Source: Terebella lapidaria
Lineage: Eukaryota; Annelida; Polychaeta; Terebellida; Terebellidae
NCBI GenBank assembly: GCA_949152475.1
Contig: OX424561.1
Location: forward strand, 8,122,001 to 8,186,000
Length of the DNA: 64,000 bases
Reading direction: 5' to 3'
Shown: positions 1 through 34,810 of the stretch, in pieces
Layout of the letters: every line of letters starts with the position of its first letter
How positions within the stretch are numbered: position 1 is the first letter of the stretch
The notes under the pieces: model-generated
The model's database searches: none
The model's input: the letters and a program-made list of their open reading frames with translations, nothing else
Told to the model about the DNA's origin: nothing
Position numbers and translations under genes: made by a program

Positions 1-705
1 TCAACGTGAATGACAAGTCAGATGACTTGATTTGCCTGCATAATACTTATGCTGAGAGCCATTAACATTAGTTTTGTCGTTTGTCAATGGCACTTTACCA
101 TGTAAATGTAATATTGACACCTGCTCACATAGGTGTATAGGATGTTCAGATTCAACAAGAAAGAGCAACTTATACACATTTTGCATTCAGTGTTAATGAT
201 GTTTCCAAGCACACAAATAACGACATTGCAATTTCACCAAGACGCTCACCAAATAATAATGAAATAATGATTATGAATAATGAAAACTGTACTATAACTA
301 GTATTTACCAAGTAGTTGATGGATATTTTGTATTGTCAGATTTATATAAGGCATTGTTATTTGATGAGTGCATGTCAATGTCATGTAAAGAATCTATAAT
401 GTATGTTTCACGATTTTGCTATCATTGAAATCATTTTTTTTATGCCAACCGCAAATCTAAGATATAAATTGTTTGGAATAACACAAAACTCGACCAACCA
501 TTTACAGCCAAAAAAACTATAGCAGGGTCATCAGTTGCAGAGAGTGTGTGAAATAAGTATGTTTCAGTTGTGCATTCAATGTAATGGGCAAACAGCTGAA
601 GTGCAAAAATACAACAAAAAGAAGTTTAACTAGTTTTTGTGTATTTTATTTGAACATGAGCAAAATTGTTATAACATTAGTAACAATCATGAAAATAACA
701 GGTCA

Positions 706-1282
706 CTACACTGGTGATAATGCTGGTGTTGGCACTAGAAATGGAGACAATTGTTGGCTTAAGAAGTTCAATGCCCAAGCTGGATGAAGTGGTTGTTGGT
801 TGATCTTGGATGGAGTAGAAGAATACGGATGGTGCCTGTGTAATGAACGAGGGGAGAAACGATGCTCTTTCTGTATCCTCTGTAGACGCTTTGGATGTAT
901 TGTTCCATTAAATGTCAGAGTGTTGTTGGAACGAACACGTTTGTTTGCCATCCATTTCTTGACCTGACTGACTGTAATCCCTCCATGTTTGACAATATTT
1001 TGGACTGCAGCATCACTGGGATAAGGATGGTCAAAATTGTCCATGTACCACATCTCCATCATTTCGACAGCTTTGGGGTTTAGGTATCGCTTAGTTGTTG
1101 CTTTCGTTGATGGAGACAATTTGGTCATATTGTCGGAGTCATATCCACTGTCTTGAGAATTGTTTGATGCTGGAGCACGAGCGGAAAAATGACTGTCCAT
1201 ATTTGCAGCAAAAGTTTTAGCTTTTGTGTCATATTCCCAAGGTCTGAAGTAATGGACAGGATATTGGGTTTGCTGTTGCCAT
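706..1282 (-). CDS. TALE homeobox gene, unit 1 (N-terminal frameshift; homeodomain intact from an internal ATG)
   Basis: This copy matches the full-length protein of unit 8, but one extra T near 1251 shifts the frame after residue 10. Starting at the usual ATG (1282) gives a 17-residue peptide. The next in-frame ATG, corresponding to residue 28 (at 1200), has A at -3 and G at +4. It would give a 164-residue protein with the DSGYDS motif, the whole homeodomain and the normal tail, but without FRPW. The TATA box, initiator and poly(A) signal are kept. It is either a pseudogene or a producer of a repressor-motif-less isoform; sequence alone cannot decide. Confidence 0.7.
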
Positions 1283-2409
1283 GTTGCTGCTGAATATATT
1301 CACAATTCTGGAGTGAAGGAATGTTTTTTCAAGGAAGTATGCTTGGCATATAACTGATGGAAACTGATATGCATTCCATTTATATACCAATTGACAGTGA
1401 CATGAGCAGTTTTCAGTGTCATACATTTATATTGATGAACTTGATCCAGTCAATTGACAAGTGAGTGAATCGAATGATGACAAGTGCAATTACAGAGTGT
1501 CAATGTCAGTTGTTCTTTGAGTTTCAAATCAAGACTTTTACTCTCAAAGAAAGTACTTTGAAGTTTGATTGATCTCTGATGAAAGGCAGTTAACGGGATC
1601 AAAAGAAGAAATCAAAGATTAGCAAATTTTAGATGAAAGGTGATCTACATAATCAAAGTGAATAATGTTCCCTATTGCTTTGAAAATAAACAACACAACT
1701 TTGCAGGATCAACGTGAATGACAAGTCAGATGACTTGATTTGCCTGCATAATACTTATGCTGAGAGCCATTAACATTAGTTTTGTCGTTTGTCAATGGCA
1801 CTTTACCATGTAAATGTAATTTTGACACCTGCTCACATAGGTGTATAGGATGTTCAGATTCAACAAGAAAGAGAAAGTTATACACATTTTGCATTCAGTG
1901 GTAATGATGTTTCCAAGCAAACAAATAATGATATTGCAATTTCACCAAGACGCTCACCAATTGTAAGAAATAATGATTATGAATAATGAAAACTGTACTA
2001 TAACTAGTATTTACCAAGTAGTTGATGGATATTTTGTATTGTCAGATTTATATAGGGCATTGTTATTTGATGAGTGCATGTCAATGTCATGTAAAGAATC
2101 TATAATGTATGTTTCACGATTTTGCTATCATTGAAATCATTTTTTTATGCCAACCGCAAATCTAAGATATAACTTGTTTGGAATAACACAAAACTCGACC
2201 AACCATTTACAGCCAAAAAACTATAGCAGGGTCATCAGTTGCAGACAGTGTGTGAAATAAGTATGTTTCAGTTGTGCATTCAATGTAATGGGCAAACAGC
2301 TGAAGTGCAAAAATGCAACAAAAGGAAGAGGAACTAGATTTTGTGTATTTTATTTGAACATGAGCAAAATTGTTATAACATTAGTAACAATCATGAAAAT
2401 AACAAGTCA

Positions 2410-2986
2410 CTACACTGGTGATAACGCTGGTGTTGGCACTAGAAATGGAGACAATTGATGGCTTAAGAAGTTCAATGCCCAAGCTGGATGAAGTGGTTGT
2501 TGGTTGATCTTGGATGGAGTAGAAGAATACGGATGGTGCCTGTGTAATGAACGAGGGGAGAAACGATGCTCTTTCTGTATCCTCTGTAGACGCTTTGGAT
2601 GTATTGTTCCATTAAATGTCAGAGTGTTGTTGGAACGAACACGTTTGTTTGCCATCCATTTCTTGACCTGACTGACTGTAATCCCTCCATGTTTGACAAT
2701 ATTTTGGACTGCAGCATCACTGGGATAAGGATGGTCAAAATTGTCCATGTACCACATCTCCATCATTTCGACAGCTTTGGGGTTTAGGTATCGCTTAGTT
2801 GTTGCTTTCGTTGATGGAGACAATTTGGTCATATTGTCGGAGTCATATCCACTGTCTTGAGAATTGTTTGATGCTGGAGCACGAGCGGAAAAATGACTGT
2901 CCATATTTGCAGCAAAAGTTTTAGCTTTTGTGTCATATTCCCAAGGTCTGAAGTAATGGACAGGATATTGGGTTTGCTGTTGCCAT
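2410..2986 (-). CDS. TALE homeobox gene, unit 2 (same N-terminal frameshift as unit 1)
   Basis: It carries the same single-base insertion as unit 1, so the two units descend from one mutated copy by duplication or conversion. The usual ATG is at 2986 and yields a short peptide. The internal ATG at 2904 opens 164 codons covering the degron-like motif, the homeodomain and the tail. Compared with unit 1 the tail has His in place of Gln at the position equivalent to residue 176. Confidence 0.7.
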
Positions 2987-4113
2987 GTTGCTGCTGAATA
3001 TATTCACAATTCTGGAGTGAAGGAATGTTTTTTCAAGGAAGTATGCTTGGCATATAACTGATGGAAACTGATATGCATTCCATTTATATACCAATTGACA
3101 GTGACATGAGCAGTTTTCAGTGTCATACATTTATATTGATGAACTTGATCCAGTCAATTGACAAGTGAGTGAATCGAATGATGACAAGTGCAATTACAGA
3201 GTGTCAATGTCAGTTGTTCTTTGAGTTTCAAATCAAGACTTTTACTCTCAAAGAAAGTACTTTGAAGTTTGATTGATCTCTGATGAAAGGCAGTTAACGG
3301 GATCAAAAGAAGAAATCAAAGATTAGCAAATTTTAGATGAAAGGTGATCTACATAATCAAAGTGAATAATGTTCCCTATTGCTTTGAAAATAAACAACAC
3401 AACTTTGCAGGATCAACGTGAATGACAAGTCAGATGACTTGATTTGCCTGCATAATACTTATGCTGAGAGCCATTAACATTAGTTTTGTCGTTTGTCAAT
3501 GGCACTTTACCATGTAAATGTAATTTTGACACCTGCTCACATAGGTGTATAGGATGTTCAGATTCAACAAGAAAGAGAAAGTTATACACATTTTGCATTC
3601 AGTGGTAATGATGTTTCCAAGCAAACAAATAATGATATTGCAATTTCACCAAGACGCTCACCAATTGTAAGAAATAATGATTATGAATAATGAAAACTGT
3701 ACTATAACTAGTATTTACCAAGTAGTTGATGGATAGTTTGTATTGTCAGATTTATATAGGGCATTGTTATTTGATGAGTGCATGTCAATGTCATGTAAAG
3801 AATCTATAATGTATGTTTCACGATTTTGCTATCATTGAAATCATTTTTTTATGCCAACCGCAAATCTAAGATATAACTTGTTTGGAATAACACAAAACTC
3901 GACCAACCATTTACAGCCAAAAAACTATAGCAGGGTCATCAGTTGCAGACAGTGTGTGAAATAAGTATGTTTCAGTTGTGCATTCAATGTAATGGGCAAA
4001 CAGCTGAAGTGCAAAAATGCAACAAAAGGAAGAGGAACTAGATTTTGTGTATTTTATTTGAACATGAGCAAAATTGTTATAACATTAGTAACAATCATGA
4101 AAATAACAAGTCA

Positions 4114-4689
4114 CTACACTGGTGATAACGCTGGTGTTGGCACTAGAAATGGAGACAATTGATGGCTTAAGAAGTTCAATGCCCAAGCTGGATGAAGTGG
4201 TTGTTGGTTGATCTTGGATGGAGTAGAAGAATACGGATGGTGCCTGTGTAATGAACGAGGGGAGAAACGATGCTCTTTCTGTATCCTCTGTAAACGCTTT
4301 GGAAGTATTGTTCCATTAAATGTCAGAGTGTTGTTGGAACGAACACGTTTGTTTGCCATCCATTTCTTGACCTGACTGACTGTAATCCCTCCATGTTTGA
4401 CAATATTTTGGACTGCAGCATCACTGGGATAAGGATGGTCAAAATTGTCCATGTACCACATCTCCATCATTTCGACAGCTTTGGGGTTTAGGTATCGCTT
4501 AGTTGTTGCTTTCGTTGATGGAGGCAATTTGGTCATATTGTCGGAGTCATATCCACTGTCTTGAGAATTGTTTGATGCTGGAGCACGAGCGGAGAAATGA
4601 CTGTCCATATTTGCAGCAAAAGTTTTAGCTTTTGTGTCATATTCCCAAGGTCTGAAGAATGGACAGGATATTGGGTTTGCTGTTGCCAT
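4114..4689 (-). CDS. TALE-class (SPILE-like) homeodomain protein, unit 3, full length, 191 aa
   Basis: This is an uninterrupted single-exon gene with the same layout as unit 8. The start at 4689 lies in the context AACATGG. Relative to unit 8 it has S56P (just before the homeodomain), H129L (just after it) and Q176H (tail). The homeodomain itself is unchanged. The promoter elements and AATAAA are present. The reading frame stays open upstream of the chosen ATG, but that stretch holds the TATA box and is better read as promoter. Confidence 0.88.
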   Translation of the reverse strand: MATANPISCPFFRPWEYDTKAKTFAANMDSHFSARAPASNNSQDSGYDSDNMTKLPPSTKATTKRYLNPKAVEMMEMWYMDNFDHPYPSDAAVQNIVKHGGITVSQVKKWMANKRVRSNNTLTFNGTILPKRLQRIQKEHRFSPRSLHRHHPYSSTPSKINQQPLHPAWALNFLSHQLSPFLVPTPALSPV

Positions 4690-5816
4690 GTTGCTGCTGA
4701 ATATATTCACAATTCTGGAGTGAAGGAATGTTTTTTCAAGGAAGTATGCTTGGCATATAACTGATGGAAACTGATATGCATTCCACTTATATACCAATTG
4801 ACAGTGTCATGAGCAGTTCTCAGTGTCATACATTTATATTGATGAACTTCATCCAGTCAATTGACAAGTGAGTGAATCGAATGATGACAAGTGCAATTAC
4901 AGAGTGTCAATGTCAGTTGTTCTTTGAGTTTCAAATCAAGACTTTTACTCTCAAAGAAAGTACTTTGAAGTTTGATTGATCTCTGATGAAAGGCAGTTAA
5001 CGGGATCAAAAGAAGAAATCAAAGATTAGCAAATTTTAGATGAAAGGTGACCTACATAATCAAAGTGAATAATGTTCCCTATTGCTTTGAAAATAAACAA
5101 CACAACTTTGCAGGATCAACGTGAATGACAAGTCAGATGACTTGATTTGCCTGCATAATACTTATGCTGAGAGCCATTAACATTAGTTTTGTCGTTTGTC
5201 AATGGCACTTTACCATGTAAATGTAATTTTGACACCTGCTCACATAGGTGTATAGGATGTTCAGATTCAACAAGAAAGAGCAACTTATACACATTTTGCA
5301 TTCAGTGTTAATGATGTTTCCAAGCAAACAAATAATGATATTGCAATTTCACCAAGACGCTCACCAATTGTAAGAAATAATGATTATGAATAATGAAAAC
5401 TGTACTATAACTAGTATTTACCAAGTAGTTGATGGATATTTTGTATTGTCAGATTTATATAGGGCATTGTTATTTGATGAGTGCATGTCAATGTCATGTA
5501 AAGAATCTATAATGTATGTTTCACGATTTTGCTATCATTGAAATCATTTTTTTATGCCAACCGCAAATCTAAGATATAAATTGTTTGGAATAACACAAAA
5601 CTCGACCAACCATTTACAGCCAAAAAACTATAGCAGAGTCATCAGTTGCAGACAGTGTGTGAAATAAGTATGTTTCAGTTGTGCATTCAATGTAATGGGC
5701 AAACAGCTGAAGTGCAAAAATGCAACAAAAGGAAGAGGAACTAGAGTTTGTGTATTTTATTTGAACATGAGCAAAATTGTTATAACATTAGTAACAATCA
5801 TGAAAATAACAAGTCA

Positions 5817-6392
5817 CTACACTGGTGATAATGCTGGTGTTGGCACTAGAAATGGAGACAATTGATGGCTTAAGAAGTTCAATGCCCAAGCTGGATGAAG
5901 TGGTTGTTGGTTGATCTTGGATGGAGTAGAAGAATACGGATGGTGCCTGTGTAATAAACGAAGGGAGAAACGATGCTCTTTCTGTATCCTCTGTAGACGC
6001 TTTGGATGTATTGTTCCATTAAATGTCAGAGTGTTGTTGGAACGAACACGTTTGTTTGCCATCCATTTCTTGACCTGACTGACTGTAATCCCTCCATGTT
6101 TGACAATATTTTGGACTGCAGCATCACTGGGATAAGGATGGTCAAAATTGTCCATGTACCACATCTCCATCATTTCGACAGCTTTGGGGTTTAGATATCG
6201 CTTAGTTGTTGCTTTCGTTGATGGAGACAATTTGGTCATATTGTCGGAGTCATATCCACTGTCTTGAGAATTGTTTGATGCTGGAGCACGAGCGGAGAAA
6301 TGACTGTCCATATTTGCAGCAAAAGTTTTAGCTTTTGTGTCATATTCCCAAGGTCTGAAGAATGGACAGGATATTGGGTTTGCTGTTGCCAT
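5817..6392 (-). CDS. TALE-class (SPILE-like) homeodomain protein, unit 4, full length, 191 aa
   Basis: Intact single-exon copy. Differences from unit 8 are P144L, S146L and Q176H, all in the region after the homeodomain, which tolerates change in several copies. The homeodomain and the FRPW and DSGYDS motifs are identical to unit 8. Confidence 0.88.
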   Translation of the reverse strand: MATANPISCPFFRPWEYDTKAKTFAANMDSHFSARAPASNNSQDSGYDSDNMTKLSPSTKATTKRYLNPKAVEMMEMWYMDNFDHPYPSDAAVQNIVKHGGITVSQVKKWMANKRVRSNNTLTFNGTIHPKRLQRIQKEHRFSLRLLHRHHPYSSTPSKINQQPLHPAWALNFLSHQLSPFLVPTPALSPV

Positions 6393-7544
6393 GTTGCTGC
6401 TGAATATATTCACAATTCTGGAGTGAAGGAATGTTTTTTCAAGGAAGTATGCTTGGCATATAACTGATGGAAACTGATATGCATTCCACTTATATACCAA
6501 TTGACAGTGTCATGAGCAGTTCTCAGTGTCATACATTTATATTGATGAACTTCATCCAGTCAATTGACAAGTGAGTGAATCGAATGATGACAAGTGCAAT
6601 TACAGAGTGTCAATGTCAGTTGTTCTTTGAGTTTCAAATCAAGACTTTTGCTCTCAAAGAGAGTACTTTGAAGTTTGATTGATCTCTGATGAAAGGCAGT
6701 TAATGGGATCAAAAGAAGAAATCAAAGATTAGCAAATTTTAGATGAAAGGTGATCTACATAATCAAAGTGAATAATGTTCCCTATTGCTTTGAAAATAAA
6801 CAACACAACTTTGCAGGATCAACGTCAATGACAAGTCAGATGACTTGATTTGCCTGCATAATACTTATGCTGAGAGCCATTAACATTAGTTTTGTCTTTT
6901 GTCAATGGCACTTGTAAACCATGTAAATGTAATTTTGACACCTGCTAACATAGGTGTATAGGATGTTCAGATTCAACAAGAAAGAGAAAGTTATACACAT
7001 TTTGCATTCAGTGTTAATGATGTTTCCAAGCACACAAATAACGACATTGCAATTTCACCAAGACGCTCACCAATCGTAAGAAATAATGATTATGAATAAT
7101 GAAAACTGTACTATAACTAGTATTTACCAAGTAGTTGATGGATATTTTGTATTGTCAGATTTATATAGGGCATTGTTATTTGATGAGTGCATGTCAATGT
7201 CATGTAAAGAATCTATAATGTATGTTTCAAGATTTTGCTATCATTGAAATCATTTTTTATGCCAACCGCAAATCTAAGATATAAATTGTTTGGAATAAAA
7301 CAAAACTCGACCAACCATTTACAGCCAAAAAACTATAGCAGGGTCATCAGTTGCAGACAGTGTGTGAAATAAGTATGTTTCAGTTGTGCATTCAATGTAA
7401 TGGGCAAACTGCTGAAGTGCAACAATGCAACAAAAGGAAGAAGAACTAGATTTTGTGTATTTTATTTGAACATGAGCAAAATTGTTATAACATTTATCAT
7501 GAAAATAACAGGTCACTACACTGGTGATAATGCTGGTGTTGGCA

Positions 7545-8090
7545 CTAGAAATGGAGACAATTGTTGGCTAAGAAGTTCAATGCCCAAGCTGGATGAAGTG
7601 GTTGTTGGTTGATCTTGGATGGAGTAGAAGAATAAGGATGGTGCCTGTGTAATGAACGAGGGGAGAAACGATGCTCTTTCTGTATCCTCTGTAGACGCTT
7701 TGGATGTATTGTTCCATTAAATGTCAGAGTGTTGTTGGAACGAACACGTTTGTTTGCCATCCATTTCTTGACCTGACTGACTGTAATCCCTCCGTGTTTG
7801 ACAATATTTTGGACTGCAGCATCACTGGGATAAGGATGGTTAAAATTGTCTATGTACCACATCTCCATCATTTCGACAGCTTTGGGGTTTAGGCATCGCT
7901 TAGTTGTTGCTTTCGTTGATGGAGACAATTTGGTCACATTGTCGGAGTTATATCCACTGTCTTGAGAATTGTTTGATGCTGGAGCTCGAACGGAGAAATG
8001 ACTGTCCATATTTGCAGCAAAAGTTTTAGCTTTTGTGTCATATTCCCAAGGTCTGAAGAATGGATAGGATATTGGGTTTGTTGTTGCCAT
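7545..8090 (-). pseudogene. TALE homeobox copy, unit 5: promoterless, frameshifted tail
   Basis: This is the most diverged copy in the left half. A deletion joins its leader (near 8160) to spacer sequence of the next unit, removing the TATA box, the initiator and all upstream sites. A one-base deletion near the C-terminus replaces the normal tail and gives a stop at 7545. The encoded protein from 8090 also has substitutions inside conserved stretches (for example S9Y, H85 region kept but D84N, and R65-Y66 read as R-C). The 61-codon spacer ORF of this unit also has an early stop. Decay in both frames fits a dead copy that is still held in the array. Confidence 0.8.
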
Positions 8091-8154
8091 GTTGCTGCTG
8101 AATACATTCACAATTCTGGAGTGAAGGAATGTTTTTTCCAAGAAGTATGCTTGG

Positions 8155-8165
8155 CATATATTGTT
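8155..8165. other. Deletion junction fusing units 5 and 6
   Basis: Normal leader sequence ends here at '...ggcatata' and continues as '...ttgtttggattaaaac', a spacer sequence that normally lies about 0.83 kb further on. Units 5 plus 6 together span 2580 bp (6819 to 9399) instead of about 3406. Both parent sites contain an 'atata' word (catataactg and gatataaattg), so a short-homology join is likely. Confidence 0.85.
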
Positions 8166-8396
8166 TGGATTAAAACAAAACTCGACCAACCATTTACAGC
8201 CAAAAAACTATAGCAGGGTCATCAGTTGCAGACAGTGTGTGAAATAAGTATGTTTCAGTTGTGCATTCAATGTAATGGGCAAACAGCTGAACTGCAACAA
8301 TACAACAAAAAGAAGTTTAACTAGTTTTTGTGTATTTTATTTGAACATGAGCAAAATTGTTATAACATTAGTAACAATCATGAAAATAACAGGTCA

Positions 8397-8972
8397 CTAC
8401 ACTGGTGATAATGCTGGTGTTGGCACTAGAAATGGAGACAATTGTTGGCTTAAGAAGTTCAATGCCCAAGCTGGATGAAGTGGTTGTTGGTTGATCTTGG
8501 ATGGAGTAGAAGAATACGGATGGTGCCTGTGTAATGAACGAGGGGAGAAACGATGCTCTTTCTGTATCCTCTGTAGACGCTTTGGATGTATTGTTCCATT
8601 AAATGTCAGAGTGTTGTTGGAACGAACACGTTTGTTTGCCATCCATTTCTTGACCTGACTGACTGTAATCCCTCCATGTTTGACAATATTTTGGACTGCA
8701 GCATCACTGGGATAAGGATGGTCAAAATTGTCCATGTACCACATCTCCATCATTTCGACAGCTTTGGGGTTTAGGTATCGCTTAGTTGTTGCTTTCGTTG
8801 ATGGAGACAATTTGGTCATATTGTCGGAGTCATATCCACTGTCTTGAGAATTGTTTGATGCTGGAGCACGAGCGGAGAAATGACTGTCCATATTTGCAGC
8901 AAAAGTTTTAGCTTTTGTGTCATATTCCCAAGGTCTGAAGAATGGACAGGATATTGGGTTTGCTGTTGCCAT
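8397..8972 (-). CDS. TALE-class (SPILE-like) homeodomain protein, unit 6, full length, 191 aa
   Basis: Intact copy whose protein is identical to unit 8. The base before the start differs (AAGATGG instead of AACATGG), which keeps A at -3. Its own promoter at about 9040-9400 is complete. Its 3' flank is shortened because of the unit 5/6 deletion, but its poly(A) signal is retained. Confidence 0.88.
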   Translation of the reverse strand: MATANPISCPFFRPWEYDTKAKTFAANMDSHFSARAPASNNSQDSGYDSDNMTKLSPSTKATTKRYLNPKAVEMMEMWYMDNFDHPYPSDAAVQNIVKHGGITVSQVKKWMANKRVRSNNTLTFNGTIHPKRLQRIQKEHRFSPRSLHRHHPYSSTPSKINQQPLHPAWALNFLSQQLSPFLVPTPALSPV

Positions 8973-10101
8973 TTTGCTGCTGAATATATTCACAATTCTG
9001 GAGTGAAGGAATGTTTTTTCAAGGAAGTATGCTTGGCATATAACTGATGGAAACTGATATGCATTCCATTTATATACCAATTGACAGTGACATGAGCAGT
9101 TCTCAGTGTCATACATTTATATTGATGAACTTGATCCAGTCAATTGACAAGTGAGTGAATCGAATGATGACAAGTGCAATTACAGAGTGTCAATGTCAGT
9201 TGTTCTTTGAGTTTCAAATCAAGACTTTTACTCTCAAAGAAAGTACTTTGAAGTTTGATTGATCTCTGATGAAAGGCAGTTAACGGGATCAAAAGAAGAA
9301 ATCAAAGATTAGCAAATTTTAGATGAAAGGTGATCTAAATAATCAAAGTGAATAATGTTCCCTATTGCTTTGAAAATAAACAACACAACTTAACAGGATC
9401 AACGTGAATGACAAGTCAGATGACTTGATTTGCCTGCATAATACTTATGCTGAGAGCCATTAACATTAGTTTTGTCGTTTGTCAAAGGCACTTTACCATG
9501 TAAATGTAATTTTGACACCTGCTCACATAGGTGTATAGGATGTTCAGATTCAACAAGAAAGAGCAACTTATACACATTTTGCATTCAGTGTTAATGATGT
9601 TTCCAAGCACACAAATAACGACATTGCAATTTCACCAAGACGCTCACCAAATAATAATGAAATAATGATTATGAATAATGAAAACTGTACTATAACTAGT
9701 ATTTACCAAGTAGTTGATGGATATTTTGTATTGTCAGATTTATATAAGGCACTGTTATTTGATGAGTGCATGTCAATGTCATGTAAAGAATCTATAATGT
9801 ATGTTTCACGATTTTGCTATCATTGAAATCATTTTTTTATGCCAACCGCAAATCTAAGATATAAATTGTTTGGAATAACACAAAACTCGACCAACCATTT
9901 ACAGCCAAAAAACTATAGCAGGGTCATCAGTTGCAGACAGTGTGTGAAATAAGTATGTTTCAGTTGTGCATTCAATGTAATGGGCAAACAGCTGAAGTGC
10001 AAAAATACAACAAAAAGAAGTTTAACTAGTTTTTGTGTATTTTATTTGAACATGAGCAAAATTGTTATAACATTAGTAACAATCATGAAAATAACAGGTC
10101 A

Positions 10102-10677
10102 CTACACTGGTGATAATGCTGGTGTTGGCACTAGAAATGGAGACAATTGTTGGCTTAAGAAGTTCAATGCCCAAGCTGGATGAAGTGGTTGTTGGTTGAT
10201 CTTGGATGGAGTAGAAGAATACGGATGGTGCCTGTGTAATGAACGAGGGGAGAAACGATGCTCTTTCTGTATCCTCTGTAGACGCTTTGGATGTATTGTT
10301 CCATTAAATGTCAGAGTGTTGTTGGAACGAACACGTTTGTTTGCCATCCATTTCTTGACCTGACTGACTGTAATCCCTCCATGTTTGACAATATTTTGGA
10401 CTGCAGCATCACTGGGATAAGGATGGTCAAAATTGTCCATGTACCACATCTCCATCATTTCGACAGCTTTGGGGTTTAGGTATCGCTTAGTTGTTGCTTT
10501 CGTTGATGGAGACAATTTGGTCATATTGTCGGAGTCATATCCACTGTCTTGAGAATTGTTTGATGCTGGAGCACGAGCGGAGAAATGACTGTCCATATTT
10601 GCAGCAAAAGTTTTAGCTTTTGTGTCATATTCCCAAGGTCTGAAGAATGGACAGGATATTGGGTTTGCTGTTGCCAT
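10102..10677 (-). CDS. TALE-class (SPILE-like) homeodomain protein, unit 7, full length, 191 aa
   Basis: Intact copy; the predicted protein is identical to that of unit 8. Promoter and poly(A) elements are as in unit 8. The 3' flank shares the variant 'aaaagaagtttaactagt' with units 1 and 6, whereas units 2 to 4 and 8 to 10 have 'aaaggaagaggaactaga'. Spacer markers and coding markers are therefore shuffled between units, as expected from recombination. Confidence 0.88.
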   Translation of the reverse strand: MATANPISCPFFRPWEYDTKAKTFAANMDSHFSARAPASNNSQDSGYDSDNMTKLSPSTKATTKRYLNPKAVEMMEMWYMDNFDHPYPSDAAVQNIVKHGGITVSQVKKWMANKRVRSNNTLTFNGTIHPKRLQRIQKEHRFSPRSLHRHHPYSSTPSKINQQPLHPAWALNFLSQQLSPFLVPTPALSPV

Positions 10678-11103
10678 GTTGCTGCTGAATATATTCACAA
10701 TTCTGGAGTGAAGGAATGTTTTTTCAAGGAAGTATGCTTGGCATATAACTGATGGAAACTGATATGCATTCCATTTATATACCAATTGACAGTGACATGA
10801 GCAGTTCTCAGTGTCATACATTTATATTGATGAACTTGATCCAGTCAATTGACAAGTGAGTGAATCGAATGATGACAAGTGCAATTACAGAGTGTCAATG
10901 TCAGTTGTTCTTTGAGTTTCAAATCAAGACTTTTACTCTCAAAGAAAGTACTTTGAAGTTTGATTGATCTCTGATGAAAGGCAGTTAACGGGATCAAAAG
11001 AAGAAATCAAAGATTAGCAAATTTTAGATGAAAGGTGATCTACATAATCAAAGTGAATAATGTTCCCTATTGCTTTGAAAATAAACAACACAACTTTGCA
11101 GGA

Positions 11104-24326: not shown

Positions 24327-25664
24327 GTTGCTGCTGAATATATTCACAATTCTGGAGTGAAGGAATGTTTTTTCAAGGAAGTATGCTTGGCATATAACTG
24401 ATGGAAACTTATATGCATTCCATTTATATACCAATTGACAGTGACATGAGCAGTTCTCAGTTTCATACATTTATATTTATGAACTTCATCCAGTCAATTG
24501 ACAAGTGAGTGAATCGAATGATGACAAGTGCAATTACAGAGTGTCAATGTCAGTTGTTCTTTGAGTTTCAAATCAAGACTTTTGCTCTCAAAGAGAGTAC
24601 TTTGAAGTTTGATTGATCTCTGATGAAAGGCAGTTAATGGAATCAAAAGAAGAAATCAAAGATTAAAAATTTTTAGATGAAAGGTGATCTACATAATCAA
24701 AGTGAATAATGTTCTCTATTGCTTTGAAAAAAAACAACACAACTTTGCAGGATCAACGTGAATGACAAGTCAGATGACTTGATTTTCCTGCATAATACTT
24801 ATGCTGAGAGCCATTAACATTAGTTTTGTCGTTTGTCAATGGCACTTTACCATGTAAATGTAATATTGACACCAGCTCACATAGGTGTATAGGATGTTCA
24901 GATTCAACAAGAAAGAGCAAGTTATACACATTTTGCATTCAGTGTTAATGATGTTTCAAAGCACACAAATAACGACATTGCAATTTCACCAAGACGCTCA
25001 CCAATTGTAAGAAATAATGATTATGAATAATGAAAACTGTACTATAACTAGTATTTACCAAGTAGTTGATGGATATTTTGTACTGTCTGATTTATATAGG
25101 GCATTGTTATTTGATGAGTGCATGTCAATGTCATGTAAAGAATCTATAATGTATGTTTCAAGATTTTGCTATCATTGAAATCGTTTTTTTTTATGCCAAC
25201 TGCAAATCTAAGATATAAATTGCTTGGATTAAAACAAAACTCGACCAACCATTTACAGCCAAAAAACTATAGCAGGGTCATCAGTTGCAGACAGTGTGTG
25301 AAATAAGTATGTTTCAGTTGTGCAATCAATGTAATGGGCAAACAGCTCAAATGCAACAATGCAACAAAAGGGAGAGGAACTAGATTTTGTGTATTTTATT
25401 TGAACATGAGCAAAATTGTTATAACATTAGTAACAATCATGAAAATAACAGGTCACTACACTGGTGATAATGCTGGTGTTGGCACTAGAAATGGAGACAA
25501 TTGTTGATTTAAGAAGTCCAATGCCCAAGCTGGATAAAGTGGTTGTTGGTTGATCTTGGATGGAGTAGAAGAATACGGATGGTGTCTGTGTGATGAACGA
25601 GGGGAGAAACGATTCTCTTTCTGTATCCTCTGTAGACGCTTTGGATGTATTGTTCCATTAAATG

Positions 25665-26027
25665 TCAGAGTGTTGTTGGAACACGTTTGTTTGCCATCCA
25701 TTTCTTGACCTGACTGACTGTAATCCCTCTGTGTTTGACAATATTTTGGACTACAGCATCACTGGGATAAGGATGGTCAAAATTGTCCATGTACCACATC
25801 TCCATCATTTCGACAGCTTTGGGGTTTAGGTATCGCTTAGTTGTTGCTTTCATTGATGGAGACAATTTGGTCATATTGTCGGAGTCATATCCACTGTCTT
25901 GAGAATTGTTTGACGCTGGAGCACGAGCGGAGAAATGACTGTCCATATTTGCAGTAAAAGATTTAGCTTTTGTATCATATTCCCAAGGTCTGAAGAATGG
26001 ACAGGATATTGGGTTTGCTGTTGCCAT
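25665..26027 (-). CDS. TALE homeobox copy, unit 16, truncated (120 aa)
   Basis: Near-duplicate of unit 13 at an offset of 5121 bp, including the 25-bp duplication upstream of the TATA box. One private change, T23S, arose after that duplication. Confidence 0.75.
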   Translation of the reverse strand: MATANPISCPFFRPWEYDTKAKSFTANMDSHFSARAPASNNSQDSGYDSDNMTKLSPSMKATTKRYLNPKAVEMMEMWYMDNFDHPYPSDAVVQNIVKHRGITVSQVKKWMANKRVPTTL

Positions 26028-27389
26028 GTTGCTGCTGTATATATTCACAATTCTGGAGTGAAGGAATGTTTTTTCAAGGAAGTATGCTTGGCATATAACT
26101 GATGGAAACTGATATGCATTCCATTTATATACCAATTGACAGTGACATGAGCAGTCCTCAGTGTCATACATTAATATCGATGAACTTGTCATACATTTAT
26201 ATCGATGAACTTCATCCAGTCAATTGACAAGTGAGTGAATCGAATGATGACAAGTGCAATTACAGAGTGTCAATGTCAGTTGTTTTTTGAGTTTCAAATC
26301 AAGACTTTTGCTCTCAAAGAGAGTACTTTGAAGTTTGATTGATCTCTGGTGAAAGGCAGTTAATGGGATCAAAAGAAGAAATCAAAGATTAACAAATTTT
26401 AGATGAAAGGTGATCTACATAATCAAAGTGAATAATGTTCTCTATTGCTTTGAAAATAAACAACACAACTTTGCAGGATCAACGTGAATGACAAGTCAGA
26501 TGACTTGATTTTCCTGCATAATACTTATTCTGAGGGCCATTAACATTAGTGTTGTCGTTTGTCAATGGCACTTTACCATGTAAATGTAATATTGACACCT
26601 GCTCACATAGGTGTATAGGATGTTCAGATTCAACAAGAAAGAGCAAGTTATACACATTTTGCATTCAGTGTTAATGATGTTTCCAAGCACACAAATAACG
26701 ACATTGCAATTTCACCAAGACGCTCACCAATTGTAAGAAATAATGATTATGAATAATGAAAACTGTACTATAACTAGTATTTACCAAGTAGTTGATGGAT
26801 ATTTTGTACTGTCTGATTTATATAGGGCATTGTTATTTGATGAGTGCATGTCAATGTCATGTAAAGAATCTATAATGTATGTTTCAAGATTTTGCTATCA
26901 TTGAAATCGTTTTTTTTATGCCAACTGCAAATCTAAGATATAAATTGCTTGGATTAAAACAAAACTCGACCAACCATTTACAGCCAAAAAACTATAGCAG
27001 GGTCATCAGTTGCAGACAGTGTGTGAAATAAGTATGTTTCAGTTGTGCAATCAATGTAATGGGCAAACAGCTCAAATGCAACAATGCAACAAAAGGGAGA
27101 GGAACTAGATTTTGTGTATTTTATTTGAACATGAGCAAAATTGTTATAACATTAGTAACAATCATGAAAATAACAGGTCACTACACTGGTGATAATGCTG
27201 GTGTTGGCACTAGAAATGGAGACAATTGTTGATTTAAGAAGTCCAATGCCCAAGCTGGATAAAGTGGTTGTTGGTTGATCTTGGATGGAGTAGAAGAATA
27301 CGGATGGTGTCTGTGTGATGAACGAGGGGAGAAACGATTCTCTTTCTGTATCCTCTGTAGACGCTTTGGATGTATTGTTCCATTAAATG

Positions 27390-27752
27390 TCAGAGTGTTG
27401 TTGGAACACGTTTGTTTGCCATCCATTTCTTGACCTGACTGACTGTAATCCCTCTGTGTTTGACAATATTTTGGACTACAGCATCACTGGGATAAGGATG
27501 GTCAAAATTGTCCATGTACCACATCTCCATCATTTCGACAGCTTTGGGGTTTAGGTATCGCTTAGTTGTTGCTTTCATTGATGGAGACAATTTGGTCATA
27601 TTGTCGGAGTCATATCCACTGTCTTGAGAATTGTTTGACGCTGGAGCACGAGCGGAGAAATGACTGTCCATATTTGCAGTAAAAGTTTTAGCTTTTGTAT
27701 CATATTCCCAAGGTCTGAAGAATGGACAGGATATTGGGTTTGCTGTTGCCAT
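27390..27752 (-). CDS. TALE homeobox copy, unit 17, truncated (120 aa)
   Basis: Near-duplicate of unit 14 at an offset of 5121 bp, with A25T, T59M, A92V and G100R and the 4-bp deletion. Core promoter and AATAAA are intact. Confidence 0.75.
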   Translation of the reverse strand: MATANPISCPFFRPWEYDTKAKTFTANMDSHFSARAPASNNSQDSGYDSDNMTKLSPSMKATTKRYLNPKAVEMMEMWYMDNFDHPYPSDAVVQNIVKHRGITVSQVKKWMANKRVPTTL

Positions 27753-29089
27753 GTTGCTGCTGAATATATTCACAATTCTGGAGTGAAGGAATGTTTTTTC
27801 AAGGAAGTATGCTTGGCATATAACTGATGGAAACTGATATGCATTCCATTTATATACCAATTGACAGTGACATGAGCAGTCCTCAGTGTCATACATTTAT
27901 ATTGATGAACTTCATCCAGTCAATTGACAAGTGAGTGAATCGAATGATGACAAGTGCAATTACAGAGTGTCAATGTCAGTTGTTCTTTGAGTTTCAAATC
28001 AAGACTTTTGCTCTCAAAGAGAGTACTTTGAAGTTTGATTGATCTCTGATGAAAGGCAGTTAATGGAATCAAAAGAAGAAATCAAAGATTAAAAATTTTT
28101 AGATGAAAGGTGATCTACATAATCAAAGTGAATAATGTTCTCTATTGCTTTGAAAATAAACAACACAACTTTGCAGGATCAACGTGAATGACAAGTCAGA
28201 TGACTTGATTTTCCTGCATAATACTTATGCTGAGAGCCATTAACATTAGTTTTGTCGTTTGTCAATGGCACTTTACCATGTAAATGTAATATTGACACCA
28301 GCTCACATAGGTGTATAGGATGTTCAGATTCAACAAGAAAGAGCAAGTTATACACATTTTGCATTCAGTGTTAATGATGTTTCCAAGCACACAAATAACG
28401 ACATTGCAATTTCACCAAGACGCTCACCAATTGTAAGAAATAATGATTATGAATAATGAAAACTGTACTATAACTAGTATTTACCAAGTAGTTGATGGAT
28501 ATTTTGTATTGTCAGATTTATATAGGACATTGTTATTTGATGAGTGCATGTCAATGTCATGTAAAGAATCTATAATGTATGTTTCAAGATTTTGCTATCA
28601 TTGAAATCGTTTTTTTTATGCCAACTGCAAATCTAAGATATAAATTGCTTGGATTAAAACAAAACTCGACCAACCATTTACAGCCAAAAAACTATAGCAG
28701 GGTCATCAGTTGCAGACAGTGTGTGAAATAAGTATGTTTCAGTTGTGCAATCAATGTAATGGGCAAACAGCTGAAATGCAACAATGCAACAAAAGGGAGA
28801 GGAACTAGATTTTGTGTATTTTATTTGAACATGAGCAAAATTGTTATAACATTAGTAACAATCATGAAAATAACAGGTCACTACACTGGTGATAATGCTG
28901 GTGTTGGCACTAGAAATGGAGACAATTGTTGATTTAAGAAGTCCAATGCCCAAGCTGGATAAAGTGGTTGTTGGTTGATCTTGGATGGAGTAGAAGAATA
29001 CGGATGGTGTCTGTGTGATGAACGAGGGGAGAAACGATTCTCTTTCTGTATCCTCTGTAGACGCTTTGGATGTATTGTTCCATTAAATG

Positions 29090-29452
29090 TCAGAGTGTTG
29101 TTGGAACACGTTTGTTTGCCATCCATTTCTTGACCTGACTGACTGTAATCCCTCTGTGTTTGACAATATTTTGGACTACAGCATCACTGGGATAAGGATG
29201 GTCAAAATTGTCCATGTACCACATCTCCATCATTTCGACAGCTTTGGGGTTTAGGTATCGCTTAGTTGTTGCTTTCATTGATGGAGACAATTTGGTCATA
29301 TTGTCGGAGTCATATCCACTGTCTTGAGAATTGTTTGACGCTGGAGCACGAGCGGAGAAATGACTGTCCATATTTGCAGTAAAAGTTTTAGCTTTTGTAT
29401 CATATTCCCAAGGTCTGAAGAATGGACAGGATATTGGGTTTGCTGTTGCCAT
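29090..29452 (-). CDS. TALE homeobox copy, unit 18, truncated (120 aa)
   Basis: Truncated subclass with T59M, A92V, G100R and the 4-bp deletion. A change in the leader ('aacttatgg' for 'aactgatgg') puts a stop in the frame upstream of the chosen ATG and also alters the initiator (TCAGTT to TAAGTT). The stop supports translation beginning at the ATG at 29452 and not further upstream. Confidence 0.72.
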   Translation of the reverse strand: MATANPISCPFFRPWEYDTKAKTFTANMDSHFSARAPASNNSQDSGYDSDNMTKLSPSMKATTKRYLNPKAVEMMEMWYMDNFDHPYPSDAVVQNIVKHRGITVSQVKKWMANKRVPTTL

Positions 29453-30581
29453 GTTGCTGCTGAATATATTCACAATTCTGGAGTGAAGGAATGTTTTTTC
29501 AAGGAAGTATGCTTGGCATATAACTTATGGAAACTGATATGCATTCCATTTATATACCAATTGACAGTGACATGAGCAGTCCTCAGTGTCATACATTTAT
29601 ATTGATGAACTTCATCCAGTCAATTGACAAGTGAGTGAATCGAATGATGACAAGTGCAATTACAGAGTGTCAATGTCAGTTGTTCTTTGAGTTTCAAATC
29701 AAGACTTTTGCTCTCAAAGAGAGTACTTTGAAGTTTGATTGATCTCTGATGAAAGGCAGTTAATGGAATCAAAAGAAGAAATCAAAGATTAAAAATTTTT
29801 AGATGAAAGGTGATCTACATAATCAAAGTGAATAATGTTCTCTATTGCTTTGAAAATAAACAACACAACTTTGCAGGATCAACGTGAATGACAAGTCAGA
29901 TGACTTGATTTTCCTGCATAATACTTATGCTGAGAGCCATTAACATTAGTTTTGTCGTTTGTCAATGGCACTTTACCATGTAAATGTAATATTGACACCA
30001 GCTCACATAGGTGTATAGGATGTTCAGATTCAACAAGAAAGAGCAAGTTATACACATTTTGCATTCAGTGTTAATGATGTTTCCAAGCACACAAATAACG
30101 ACATTGCAATTTCACCAAGACGCTCACCAATTGTAAGAAATAATGATTATGAATAATGAAAACTGTACTATAACTAGTATTTACCAAGTAGTTGATGGAT
30201 ATTTTGTATTGTCAGATTTATATAGGGCATTTTTATTTGATGAGTGCATGTCAATGTCATGTAAAGAATCTATAATGTATGTTTCAAGATTTTGCTATCA
30301 TTGAAATCGTTTTTTTTTATGCCAACTGCAAATCTAAGATATAAATTGCTGGGATTAAAACAAAACTCGACCAACCATTTACAGCCAAAAAACTATAGCA
30401 GGGTCATCAGTTGCAGACAGTGTGTGAAATAAGTATGTTTCAGTTGTGCATTCAATGTAATGGGCAAACAGCTGAAATGCAACAATGCAACAAAAGGAAG
30501 AGGAACTAGATTTTGTGTATTTTAATTGAACATGAGCAAAATTGTTATAACATTAGTAACAATCATGAAAATAACAGGTCA

Positions 30582-31137
30582 CTACACTGGTGATAATGCT
30601 GGTGTTGGCACTAGAAATGGAGACAATTGTTGATTTAAGAAGTCCAATGCCCAAGCTGGATAAAGTGGTTGTTGGTTGATCTTGGATGGAGTAGAAGAAT
30701 ACGGATGGTGTCTGTGTAATGAACGAGGGGAGAAACGATGCTCTTTCTGTATCCTCTGTAGACGCTTTGGATGTATTGTTCCATTAAATGTCAAAGTGTT
30801 GTTGGAACGAACACGTTTGTTTGCCATCCATTTCTTGACCTGACTGACTGTAATCCCTCCGTGTTTGACAATATTTTGGACTGCAGCATCACTGGGATAA
30901 GGTGGTCAAAATTGTCCATGTAATACATCTCAATCATAGGTATCGCTTAGTTGTTGCTTTCGTTGATGGAGACAATTTGGTCATATTGTCGGAGTCATAT
31001 CCACTGTCTTGGGAATTGTTTGATGTTGTAGCACGAGCGGAGAAATGACTGTCCATATTTGGAGCAAAAATTTCAGCTTTTGTGTCATATTCCCAAGGTC
31101 TGAAGAATGGACAGGATATTGGATTTGCTGTTGCCAT
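30582..31137 (-). pseudogene. TALE homeobox pseudogene, unit 19 (broken inside the homeodomain)
   Basis: The start and the first about 65 codons are readable. A deletion of about 20 bp near 30938 and a one-base loss near 30903 then disrupt homeodomain helices 1 and 2. The sequence coding for helix 3 and the tail is still present in another frame without the 4-bp deletion of its neighbours. D-to-E and A-to-P type changes before the homeodomain are in excess, as expected for relaxed constraint. The poly(A) signal is ATTAAA. Confidence 0.85.
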
Positions 31138-32474
31138 GTTGCTGCTGAATATGTTCACAATTCTGAAGTGAAGGAATGTCTTTTCAAGGAAGTGTGCTTG
31201 GTATACAACTGATGGAAACTGATATGCATTCCATTTATATACCAATTGACAGTGACATGAGCAGTTCTCAGTGTCATACATTTATATTGATGAACTTCAT
31301 CCAGTCAATTGACAAGTGAGTGAATCGAATGATGATAAGTGCAATTACAGAGTGTCAATGTCAGTTGTTCTTTGAGTTTCAAATCAAGACTTTTGCTCTC
31401 AAAGAGAGTACTTTGAAGTTTGATTGATCTCTGATGAAAGGCAGTTAATGGAATCAAAAGAAGAAATCAAAGATTAAAAATTTTTAGATGAAAGGTGATC
31501 TACATAATCAAAGTGAATAATGTTCTCTATTGCTTTGAAAATAAACAACACAACTTTGCAGGATCAACGTGAATGACAAGTCAGATGACTTGATTTTCCT
31601 GCATAATACTTATGCTGAGAGCCATTAACATTAGTTTTGTCGTTTGTCAATGGCACTTTACCATGTAAATGTAATATTGACACCAGCTCACATAGGTGTA
31701 TAGGATGTTCAGATTCAACAAGAAAGAGCAAGTTATACACATTTTGCATTCAGTGTTAATGATGTTTCCAAGCACACAAATAACGACATTGCAATTTCAC
31801 CAAGACGCTCACCAATTGTAAGAAATAATGATTATGAATAATGAAAACTGTACTATAACTAGTATTTACCAAGTAGTTGATGGATATTTTGTATTGTCAG
31901 ATTTATATAGGACATTGTTATTTGATGAGTGCATGTCAATGTCATGTAAAGAATCTATAATGTATGTTTCAAGATTTTGCTATCATTGAAATCGTTTTTT
32001 TTATGCCAACTGCAAATCTAAGATATAAATTGCTTGGATTAAAACAAAACTCGACCAACCATTTACAGCCAAAAAACTATAGCAGGGTCATCAGTTGCAG
32101 ACAGTGTGTGAAATAAGTATGTTTCAGTTGTGCAATCAATGTAATGGGCAAACAGCTCAAATGCAACAATGCAACAAAAGGGAGAGGAACTAGATTTTGT
32201 GTATTTTATTTGAACATGAGCAAAATTGTTATAACATTAGTAACAATCATGAAAATAACAGGTCACTACACTGGTGATAATGCTGGTGTTGGCACTAGAA
32301 ATGGAGACAATTGTTGATTTAAGAAGTCCAATGCCCAAGCTGGATAAAGTGGTTGTTGGTTGATCTTGGATGGAGTAGAAGAATACGGATGGTGTCTGTG
32401 TGATGAACGAGGGGAGAAACGATTCTCTTTCTGTATCCTCTGTAGACGCTTTGGATGTATTGTTCCATTAAATG

Positions 32475-32837
32475 TCAGAGTGTTGTTGGAACACGTTTGT
32501 TTGCCATCCATTTCTTGACCTGACTGACTGTAATCCCTCTGTGTTTGACAATATTTTGGACTACAGCATCACTGGGATAAGGATGGTCAAAATTGTCCAT
32601 GTACCACATCTCCATCATTTCGACAGCTTTGGGGTTTAGGTATCGCTTAGTTGTTGCTTTCATTGATGGAGACAATTTGGTCATATTGTCGGAGTCATAT
32701 CCACTGTCTTGAGAATTGTTTGACGCTGGAGCACGAGCGGAGAAATGACTGTCCATATTTGCAGTAAAAGTTTTAGCTTTTGTATCATATTCCCAAGGTC
32801 TGAAGAATGGACAGGATATTGGGTTTGCTGTTGCCAT
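32475..32837 (-). CDS. TALE homeobox copy, unit 20, truncated (120 aa)
   Basis: Copy of unit 18 at an offset of 3385 bp, with the same 4-bp deletion, the same T59M, A92V and G100R, and the same leader stop. A nearby difference ('cagctcaaatg' for 'cagctgaaatg') separates the two. Confidence 0.72.
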   Translation of the reverse strand: MATANPISCPFFRPWEYDTKAKTFTANMDSHFSARAPASNNSQDSGYDSDNMTKLSPSMKATTKRYLNPKAVEMMEMWYMDNFDHPYPSDAVVQNIVKHRGITVSQVKKWMANKRVPTTL

Positions 32838-33966
32838 GTTGCTGCTGAATATATTCACAATTCTGGAGTGAAGGAATGTTTTTTCAAGGAAGTATGCTTG
32901 GCATATAACTTATGGAAACTGATATGCATTCCATTTATATACCAATTGACAGTGACATGAGCAGTCCTCAGTGTCATACATTTATATTGATGAACTTCAT
33001 CCAGTCAATTGACAAGTGAGTGAATCGAATGATGACAAGTGCAATTACAGAGTGTCAATGTCAGTTGTTCTTTGAGTTTCAAATCAAGACTTTTGCTCTC
33101 AAAGAGAGTACTTTGAAGTTTGATTGATCTCTGATGAAAGGCAGTTAATGGAATCAAAAGAAGAAATCAAAGATTAAAAATTTTTAGATGAAAGGTGATC
33201 TACATAATCAAAGTGAATAATGTTCTCTATTGCTTTGAAAATAGACAACACAACTTTGCAGGATCAACGTGAATGACAAGTCAGATGACTTGATTTTCCT
33301 GCATAATACTTATGCTGAGAGCCATTAACATTAGTTTTGTCGTTTGTCAATGGCACTTTACCATGTAAATGTAATATTGACACCAGCTCACATAGGTGTA
33401 TAGGATGTTCAGATTCAACAAGAAAGAGCAAGTTATACACATTTTGCATTCAGTGTTAATGATGTTTCCAAGCACACAAATAACGACATTGCAATTTCAC
33501 CAAGACGCTCACCAATTGTAAGAAATAATGATTATGAATAATGAAAACTGTACTATAACTAGTATTTACCAAGTAGTTGATGGATATTTTGTATTGTCAG
33601 ATTTATATAGGGCATTTTTATTTGATGAGTGCATGTCAATGTCATGTAAAGAATCTATAATGTATGTTTCAAGATTTTGCTATCATTGAAATCGTTTTTT
33701 TTTATGCCAACTGCAAATCTAAGATATAAATTGCTGGGATTAAAACAAAACTCGACCAACCATTTACAGCCAAAAAACTATAGCAGGGTCATCAGTTGCA
33801 GACAGTGTGTGAAATAAGTATGTTTCAGTTGTGCATTCAATGTAATGGGCAAACAGCTGAAATGCAACAATGCAACAAAAGGAAGAGGAACTAGATTTTG
33901 TGTATTTTAATTGAACATGAGCAAAATTGTTATAACATTAGTAACAATCATGAAAATAACAGGTCA

Positions 33967-34522
33967 CTACACTGGTGATAATGCTGGTGTTGGCACTAGA
34001 AATGGAGACAATTGTTGATTTAAGAAGTCCAATGCCCAAGCTGGATAAAGTGGTTGTTGGTTGATCTTGGATGGAGTAGAAGAATACGGATGGTGTCTGT
34101 GTAATGAACGAGGGGAGAAACGATGCTCTTTCTGTATCCTCTGTAGACGCTTTGGATGTATTGTTCCATTAAATGTCAAAGTGTTGTTGGAACGAACACG
34201 TTTGTTTGCCATCCATTTCTTGACCTGACTGACTGTAATCCCTCCGTGTTTGACAATATTTTGGACTGCAGCATCACTGGGATAAGGTGGTCAAAATTGT
34301 CCATGTAATACATCTCAATCATAGGTATCGCTTAGTTGTTGCTTTCGTTGATGGAGACAATTTGGTCATATTGTCGGAGTCATATCCACTGTCTTGGGAA
34401 TTGTTTGATGTTGTAGCACGAGCGGAGAAATGACTGTCCATATTTGGAGCAAAAATTTCAGCTTTTGTGTCATATTCCCAAGGTCTGAAGAATGGACAGG
34501 ATATTGGATTTGCTGTTGCCAT
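33967..34522 (-). pseudogene. TALE homeobox pseudogene, unit 21 (copy of unit 19)
   Basis: It carries the same two homeodomain deletions and the same substitutions as unit 19, so it was dead before it was duplicated. Its upstream flank crosses the array edge near 34810, beyond which the sequence is clearly diverged, although both ATCAAAG sites remain. Confidence 0.85.
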
Positions 34523-34810
34523 GTTGCTGCTGAATATGTTCACAATTCTGAAGTGAAGGAATGTCTTTTCAAGGAAGTGTGCTTGGTATACAACTGATGG
34601 AAACTGATATGCATTCCATTTATATACCAATTGACAGTGACATGAGCAGTTCTCAGTGTCATACATTTATATTGATGAACTTCATCCAGTCAATTGACAA
34701 GTGAGTGAATCGAATGATGATAAGTGCAATTACAGAGTGTCAATGTCAGTTGTTCTTTGAGTTTCAAATCAAGACTTTTGCTCTCAAAGAGAGTACTTTG
34801 AAGTTTGATC

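What the first reader, a model, noticed from the sequence alone, without database searches (positions are those of the whole stretch)
1..34810. A macrosatellite of intronless homeobox genes in a spiralian, similar in layout to DUX4/D4Z4
At least 21 head-to-tail units of 1.7 kb each carry a single-exon TALE homeobox gene with its own TATA box, initiator and poly(A) signal. Seven copies encode nearly identical 191-residue proteins. Homeobox genes are rarely kept as homogenised tandem arrays. The best-known case is mammalian DUX4, an intronless double-homeobox gene active at genome activation. Spiralian-specific TALE genes (SPILE) are known to act in cleavage-stage embryos. High dosage from an array could serve a short, strong early expression pulse, an independent evolution of the DUX strategy.
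Basis: partly seen in the sequence, partly recalled or inferred. Interest (0 to 1): 0.92.

Follow-up and report, generated by a model that had tools for sequence, protein, structure and literature searches.

The report
Tandem array of TALE homeobox genes
A stretch of animal DNA repeats one small homeobox (developmental control) gene about twenty times in a row, but only seven of the copies seen keep an intact reading frame; similar arrays are already known from a limpet and a chiton, so this looks like a large new example rather than a new kind of thing.

Summary
The array is real. Window 1-35770, minus strand, holds head-to-tail 1703-bp units: 19 full-length (pairwise 96.1-99.9%), one shortened, one diverged edge unit and two fragments; it runs off the left end. 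Each unit carries a TALE homeobox ORF (Pfam Homeobox_KN; nearest solved structures PBX/Extradenticle). Within the window 7 of 21 units keep the 191-codon frame. Fourteen are broken, mostly by shared mutations: a 4-bp deletion cutting the homeodomain (8 units), 19-bp plus 1-bp deletions (two), a 1-bp insertion (two). A three-unit block is duplicated and a clean exchange tract links u19 and u21, so recombination spreads dead alleles as well as live ones. The seven intact copies show modest purifying selection (no amino-acid change in the homeodomain). The protein has the QVKK motif reported for mollusc-only TALE clade VI, fitting a SPILE-like gene; species, phylogeny and expression could not be tested. 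Near-identical tandem SPILE genes are published for Lottia (8) and a chiton (7), giant homeobox arrays for mammals. The DUX4 likeness holds for layout only; an early dosage pulse is untested and not favoured by the many broken units, though more intact units may lie beyond the window.

The parts
1..35770 (-). Whole tandem array, unit 1703 bp, continuing off the left end of the window
   Evidence: blastn of one unit against the window
706..33966 (-). Units u01-u20: 19 full length (96.1-99.9% pairwise) plus shortened u05
7516..8396 (-). u05, unit with about 821 bp deleted, promoter included, plus a 1-bp deletion in the ORF
4114..4689 (-). Intact 191-codon TALE homeobox ORF, u03
5817..6392 (-). 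Intact 191-codon ORF, u04
8397..8972 (-). Intact 191-codon ORF, u06
10102..10677 (-). Intact 191-codon ORF, u07 (reference copy); homeodomain residues 60-122 at 10312-10500
   Evidence: homeodomain limits inferred from the PBX alignment
11805..12380 (-). Intact 191-codon ORF, u08
13508..14083 (-). Intact 191-codon ORF, u09
15211..15786 (-). Intact 191-codon ORF, u10
10750..10781 (-). Predicted core promoter of u07: TATATAA (unit position 1024) to the A of an initiator-like TCAGTT (1055), which lies 73 bp before the ATG
   Evidence: consensus match only, not evidence of use
10041..10046 (-). AATAAA poly(A) signal about 56 bp after the stop of the u07 ORF
706..4113 (-). u01 and u02: shared 1-bp insertion stops the 191 frame after 17 codons; a 164-codon ORF from Met28 keeps the homeodomain
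16915..18608 (-). u11: 11-bp deletion changes the C-terminal tail
18609..33966 (-). u12-u20: eight of these nine units (not u19) share a 4-bp deletion that ends the frame at 120 codons, inside homeodomain helix 3
18609..28880 (-). Duplicated three-unit block: u12-u13-u14 = u15-u16-u17 (99.5, 99.9, 99.8% identity)
30718..31336 (-). Exchange tract in u19 shared with u21 (approximate limits): 19 of 19 diagnostic sites and both deletions shared; 0 of 136 outside
33967..35618 (-). u21, diverged edge unit, pseudogene (19-bp and 1-bp deletions in the homeobox)
35657..35770 (-). Fragment of a further unit (u22): C-terminal ORF end only; right edge of the array

Best explanation
A lineage-specific, SPILE-like (mollusc-type noncanonical TALE) homeobox gene, apparently without introns, has been tandemly amplified into a macrosatellite. 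It evolves by unequal crossing-over and gene conversion in a birth-and-death process. Shown by sequence: the units, the duplicated three-unit block, the exchange tract and the sharing of frame-breaking alleles between units. Supported, modestly: the seven intact copies are under purifying selection, chiefly in the first 117 codons, so at least some probably still make a DNA-binding TALE protein. Inferred only: the protein acts as a cleavage-stage transcription factor like other mollusc SPILE genes, each intact copy being transcribed from its own TATA promoter, and copy number is mainly a by-product of recombination, selection needing only a few working copies.
For: TALE homeodomain by Pfam (E = 6.8e-13), by PBX/Exd matches in the PDB and by the fold model (42 of 191 residues at pLDDT 70-90, in the homeodomain; best Foldseek match Exd, E = 6.7e-4). 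QVKK (residues 106-109) is the motif reported within TALE clade VI, a clade restricted to Mollusca (PMC5322547). Intact frames 7 of 21. In the seven intact copies: 8 missense, 7 silent over the frame (omega about 0.35, one-sided p = 0.043); 2 and 5 in codons 1-117 (p = 0.0075); 0 and 2 in the homeodomain; in u11-u20 the homeodomain has 7 and 2. Missense variants in the intact set are scarcer than non-coding ones (8/449 against 59/983 sites, p = 0.0002), while in u12-u20 they are not (16/449 against 28/983, p = 0.51). Duplicate block u12-14/u15-17, and similarity falling with distance: 98.75% at lag 1, 96.8-97.0% at lags 12-18. Exchange tract: 19 of 19 sites against 0 of 136. [quoted passage not shown] A/C- and B-clade SPILE expression starts at the 4-16-cell stages.
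Against: The selection tests rest on 7 to 15 changes; the best p value (0.0075) is one of 16 overlapping tests and would not survive Bonferroni correction. Over all units missense sites are not scarcer than non-coding ones (34/449 against 90/983, p = 0.36). Without u19 the right-hand group (7 missense, 5 silent over the frame; 4 and 2 in the homeodomain) is not clearly different from the intact group. The C-terminal tail shows no constraint in the intact set (6 and 2). u21 against the consensus: 11 missense, 6 silent, uninformative. Conversion moves variants in blocks, so sites are not independent. No expression data, species name, homologue from another species or phylogeny. SPILE A/C genes mostly have an N-terminal PADRE region of about 87-90 residues; only 59 residues precede the homeodomain in the 191-aa frame and I had no PADRE sequence to compare.
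Confidence: 0.6

Rival explanations
1. A dying or functionless satellite: the repeat unit once held a gene, but the array now persists by recombination alone and the seven intact frames are just the youngest copies.
For: 14 of 21 frames broken; dead units amplify as recently as live ones (u13/u16, u18/u20 99.9%); u08 and u09 each differ from u07 by 1 base in 1703, so their intactness needs little selection.
Against: In the intact set missense changes are scarce against silent and non-coding ones; intact u04, u06 and u10 differ from u07 by 1.2-2.4% yet carry no frame break.
Confidence: 0.2
2. A DUX-like system: the array is kept long because high copy number gives a short, strong pulse of a genome-activating homeobox factor in the early embryo.
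For: Layout resembles D4Z4 (homeobox ORF in every unit, head to tail); units have their own TATA box and poly(A) signal; related mollusc TALE genes are early-expressed (PMC5322547); the array runs off the window on the side where the intact units lie, so more intact copies may exist.
Against: In the window only 7 of 21 units (9 if the Met28 start of u01 and u02 is used) could add intact homeodomain protein. In human muscle long D4Z4 arrays are silenced and stable mRNA depends on a poly(A) site of the permissive haplotype (PMC12376486, PMC5849414 passages), so dosage by array length is not an established DUX4 strategy. The protein has one TALE homeodomain, not a double homeodomain.
Confidence: 0.1
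3. The truncated 120-residue proteins (8 units) are themselves functional, for example as competitors that keep the protein-interaction part and lose DNA binding.
For: One truncated allele is shared by 8 units that keep the TATA box and an AATAAA or ATTAAA; the right-hand group without u19 has 6 missense and 4 silent in codons 1-117, omega about 0.43.
Against: That count is not significant (p = 0.16); the deletion looks like a slip between two copies of GTTC, an ordinary origin for a null allele; part of its spread is explained by the three-unit duplication.
Confidence: 0.05
4. Assembly artefact: haplotypes or read errors stacked as false tandem copies.
For: The window is one assembly of unknown kind; no reads were available.
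Against: Units are separable by private and shared indels, form two sub-families plus a diverged edge, and lie next to non-repeated DNA; no N in the window. A collapsed array is likelier than an inflated one (general knowledge).
Confidence: 0.05

Closest known systems
SPILE A/C-clade genes of Lottia gigantea and the chiton Acanthopleura granulata (PMC8524836)
   Same: Spiralian TALE homeobox sequences, nearly identical, in tandem (8 in Lottia) or on one scaffold (7 in the chiton), from recent lineage-specific duplication
   Different: Fewer copies, some not predicted as genes; unit layout, broken copies and conversion are not described in the sections read; orthology to the present gene untested
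Mollusc TALE clade VI of Paps et al. 2015 (PMC5322547; some members later moved to other clades in PMC6118893)
   Same: QVKK motif, TALE homeodomain
   Different: About 87-residue PADRE region expected upstream of the homeodomain; could not be shown here
Mammalian ETCHbox arrays: rabbit LEUTX, mouse Obox (PMC8208926)
   Same: Large tandem arrays of lineage-specific, embryonically expressed homeobox genes with many pseudogenes (rabbit LEUTX: 14 of 27 putatively functional, 11 putative pseudogenes)
   Different: PRD class and multi-exon (loci of single exons are listed apart); the repeated gene conversion reported there is between TPRX1 and TPRX2, not shown for the arrays in the passages read
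Human DUX4 / D4Z4 macrosatellite (PMC12376486, PMC5849414)
   Same: Head-to-tail macrosatellite with one homeobox-gene ORF per unit
   Different: 3.3-kb unit, retrogene with a double homeodomain (PRD class: recalled); in muscle the poly(A) site comes from the permissive haplotype. Here a 1.7-kb unit, one TALE homeodomain, poly(A) signal within the units

Membership tests
TALE-class homeobox | Homeodomain with three-residue loop extension and KN-type signature | tested here: met
   Pfam Homeobox_KN above its cut-off (48.7 against 24 bits); gap-free alignment to PBX1 across the PYP loop; fold model best matches Exd/PBX
SPILE (spiralian TALE), A/C clade | Falls in the SPILE clade in a homeodomain phylogeny | not testable with these tools
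   No SPILE sequences or eukaryote genomes on hand; the passages read print no sequences beyond short motifs
Mollusc TALE clade VI (part of SPILE A/C) | QVKK motif | tested here: met
   Residues 106-109 in all six copies aligned; motif from PMC5322547. One short motif, so weak on its own
SPILE (spiralian TALE), A/C clade | PADRE region upstream of the homeodomain | tested here: inconclusive
   59 residues precede the homeodomain against about 87-90 expected; no reference PADRE sequence to compare
SPILE (spiralian TALE), A/C clade | Zygotic expression in early cleavage | not testable with these tools
   No RNA data; literature on relatives only
Macrosatellite | Head-to-tail units over 1 kb, high identity, many copies | tested here: met
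   1703-bp unit, 19 full units at 96.1-99.9%
DUX4/D4Z4 | Two homeodomains in one protein | tested here: not met
   One TALE homeodomain stretch; DUX4 structures match more weakly than Exd/PBX (E 0.013 or worse)
DUX4/D4Z4 | Poly(A) site supplied by the permissive haplotype, not by each repeat unit | tested here: not met
   AATAAA inside 20 of 22 units, ATTAAA in the other two; D4Z4 facts
DUX4/D4Z4 | Cleavage-stage expression, repressed in most somatic tissues | not testable with these tools
   No expression or chromatin data. CpG observed/expected is 0.37 in the array, but the seven 4-kb flank bins range 0.32-0.79, so it is not distinctive (a last bin of 230 bases, 1.09, set aside)

The most novel reading that the evidence does not exclude
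A spiralian has independently evolved a DUX-like macrosatellite: an intronless homeobox gene array whose intact copy number sets the strength of an early embryonic transcription pulse, with a truncated sub-family, spread by recombination, acting as a built-in competitor.
Probability: 0.07. Interest if true: 0.85.

Novelty: new member of a known kind. Interest (0 to 1): 0.45.

Why it matters
It is a compact, readable case of a transcription-factor gene inside a concertedly evolving array: one can see disabling alleles being shared and block-duplicated alongside intact ones. It offers a natural test of how many working copies a developmental regulator needs, and whether array length is selected or drifts. 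If orthologous arrays exist in related species, it would show how the spiralian TALE expansion turns over so fast.

Tried and rejected
A strongly conserved proximal promoter: u21 differs from the consensus at only 1 of 218 sites upstream of the gene (unit positions 841-1058) against 24 of 240 just upstream. I first took this for constraint, but the same stretch lies in or beside the exchange tract shared with u19, so recent exchange explains it.

The 239-codon ORF seen in several units: rejected as the likely protein because its extra 48 codons run across the TATA box and predicted start site.

A parental or second homeobox gene in the flank: tblastn of the 191-aa protein over 35800-64000 found nothing convincing (best E = 1.0). 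Viral contigs: 4 stretches matched a pattern, none encodes a relative. Rfam (gathering threshold) and tRNA scans of the window: nothing.

Ancestral frame of the C-terminal tail from u22: 13 substitutions, 3, 4 and 6 at first, second and third codon positions, uninformative.

CpG depletion as a sign of array silencing: not distinctive.

Literature: in the listings (some cut: 20 of 85 papers shown, 15 of 78, 10 of 40) I saw no description of this array. The library lacks most subscription journals, the species is unknown, and Morino et al. 2017 is not held (its DOI was recalled).
Full report
What is there. A blastn of one 1703-bp unit against the window shows head-to-tail copies on the minus strand from base 1 to 35770 (right edge resolved). 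I number them u00 (1-705, cut by the window edge), u01-u20 (706-33966), u21 (33967 to about 35618, diverged) and a fragment u22 (35657-35770). Nineteen of u01-u20 are full length; u05 (7516-8396) has lost about 821 bp. The 171 pairs of full units are 96.1-99.9% identical, and similarity falls with distance along the array (98.75% for neighbours, 96.8-97.0% at 12-18 units apart).

The gene. The unit holds an ORF of 191 codons with a TALE homeodomain: Pfam Homeobox_KN, E = 6.8e-13; nearest solved structures PBX1 and Extradenticle. An AlphaFold model built on six window copies is confident only for the homeodomain (42 of 191 residues at pLDDT 70-90; mean 51.8 overall). A TATATAA lies about 30 bp before an initiator-like TCAGTT and about 100 bp before the ATG; AATAAA lies about 56 bp after the stop. 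These are consensus matches, common by chance, and do not prove use. A 239-codon ORF in several units runs back across the TATA box and is probably not the protein. No intron is needed to read the homeobox, but an upstream exon cannot be excluded.

How many copies could work. Of the 21 units u01-u21, seven keep the full frame: u03, u04, u06, u07, u08, u09, u10. The breaks are: a 1-bp insertion shared by u01 and u02 (a 164-codon ORF from Met28 remains, with the homeodomain); the large deletion and a 1-bp deletion in u05; an 11-bp deletion in u11; a 4-bp deletion shared by eight units (u12-u18, u20), which ends the protein at 120 residues inside helix 3 of the homeodomain; and a 19-bp plus 1-bp deletion shared by u19 and u21. 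By my numbering from the PBX alignment, the 4-bp deletion removes the arginine at homeodomain position 55 and the end of helix 3. The array continues beyond the left end of the window, on the side where the intact units lie, so seven is a lower bound.

How it evolves. u12-u13-u14 and u15-u16-u17 are a duplicated three-unit block (99.5, 99.9 and 99.8%). u19 shares with u21 all 19 diagnostic bases between unit positions 929 and 1567 and both deletions, and 0 of 136 diagnostic bases outside. This is non-allelic exchange with a breakpoint between positions 840 and 929; its direction cannot be told. Live and dead units have both been amplified recently (u07-u09, u13/u16 and u18/u20, all 99.9%).

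Selection. Variable sites in the seven intact units: 8 missense and 7 silent (expected silent fraction 0.237 with the transition bias of the non-coding part; one-sided p = 0.043). In codons 1-117: 2 and 5 (p = 0.0075). In the homeodomain: 0 and 2. In the C-terminal tail: 6 and 2, no constraint. Missense against non-coding sites: 8/449 against 59/983, p = 0.0002 in the intact set; 16/449 against 28/983, p = 0.51 in u12-u20; 34/449 against 90/983, p = 0.36 over u00-u20. In u11-u20: 17 missense and 7 silent over the frame, 7 and 2 in the homeodomain, partly from the u19 tract; without u19 it is 7 and 5, and 4 and 2. u00 and u05 were left out of the group tests because they are incomplete; the u00-u20 line includes both. 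The evidence for constraint is modest: few changes, 16 overlapping tests, and conversion moves variants in blocks.

What kind of gene. Paps et al. [quoted passage not shown] The present protein has QVKK at residues 106-109. This makes a mollusc SPILE-type gene likely, but I had no SPILE sequences, no eukaryote genomes and no species name, so clade membership and the PADRE region remain untested.

What is known. Phuangphong et al. describe eight nearly identical tandem homeodomain sequences in Lottia and seven on one scaffold in a chiton (PMC8524836; abstract, section 5 part 1 and section 13). Barton-Owen et al. describe the spiralian TALE genes as undergoing rapid and relatively unconstrained duplication and loss, and name human Dux among other radical homeobox expansions (PMC6118893, passages). 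Rabbit LEUTX (27 copies, 14 putatively functional) and mouse Obox (66 loci) are giant homeobox arrays (PMC8208926, passages). So the kind is known; this is a larger and regular example, and the visible spread of dead alleles is its most interesting trait.

The DUX4 comparison. Shared: macrosatellite layout and one homeobox-gene ORF per unit. Different: stable DUX4 mRNA in muscle needs a poly(A) site of the permissive haplotype, and long arrays are repressed (PMC12376486 and PMC5849414, passages); here each unit has its own signal. PMC5849414 itself says that little is known about DUX4 regulation in cleavage embryos. A dosage pulse is possible but is not favoured by 14 of 21 broken units.

Surroundings. 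The species is unknown; one search found no genome held for the window.

Noticed in passing
   Followed up: partly
window 56738-58699 (-): 653-codon ORF, rich in proline and serine, with no Pfam family at E up to 1 and no PDB match better than E = 0.14.
   Followed up: partly
window 35801-35828: A 28-bp piece of the unit's 3' region in inverted orientation just beyond the right edge of the array (86% identity, E = 0.005), which may mark a rearrangement at the edge.
   Followed up: no
window 19315-19365, 21041-21091, 26162-26212: A 25-bp tandem duplication just upstream of the TATA box in three units only (u12, u13, u16).
   Followed up: partly
window 63156-63294: 69-bp minisatellite, two copies.
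   Followed up: no
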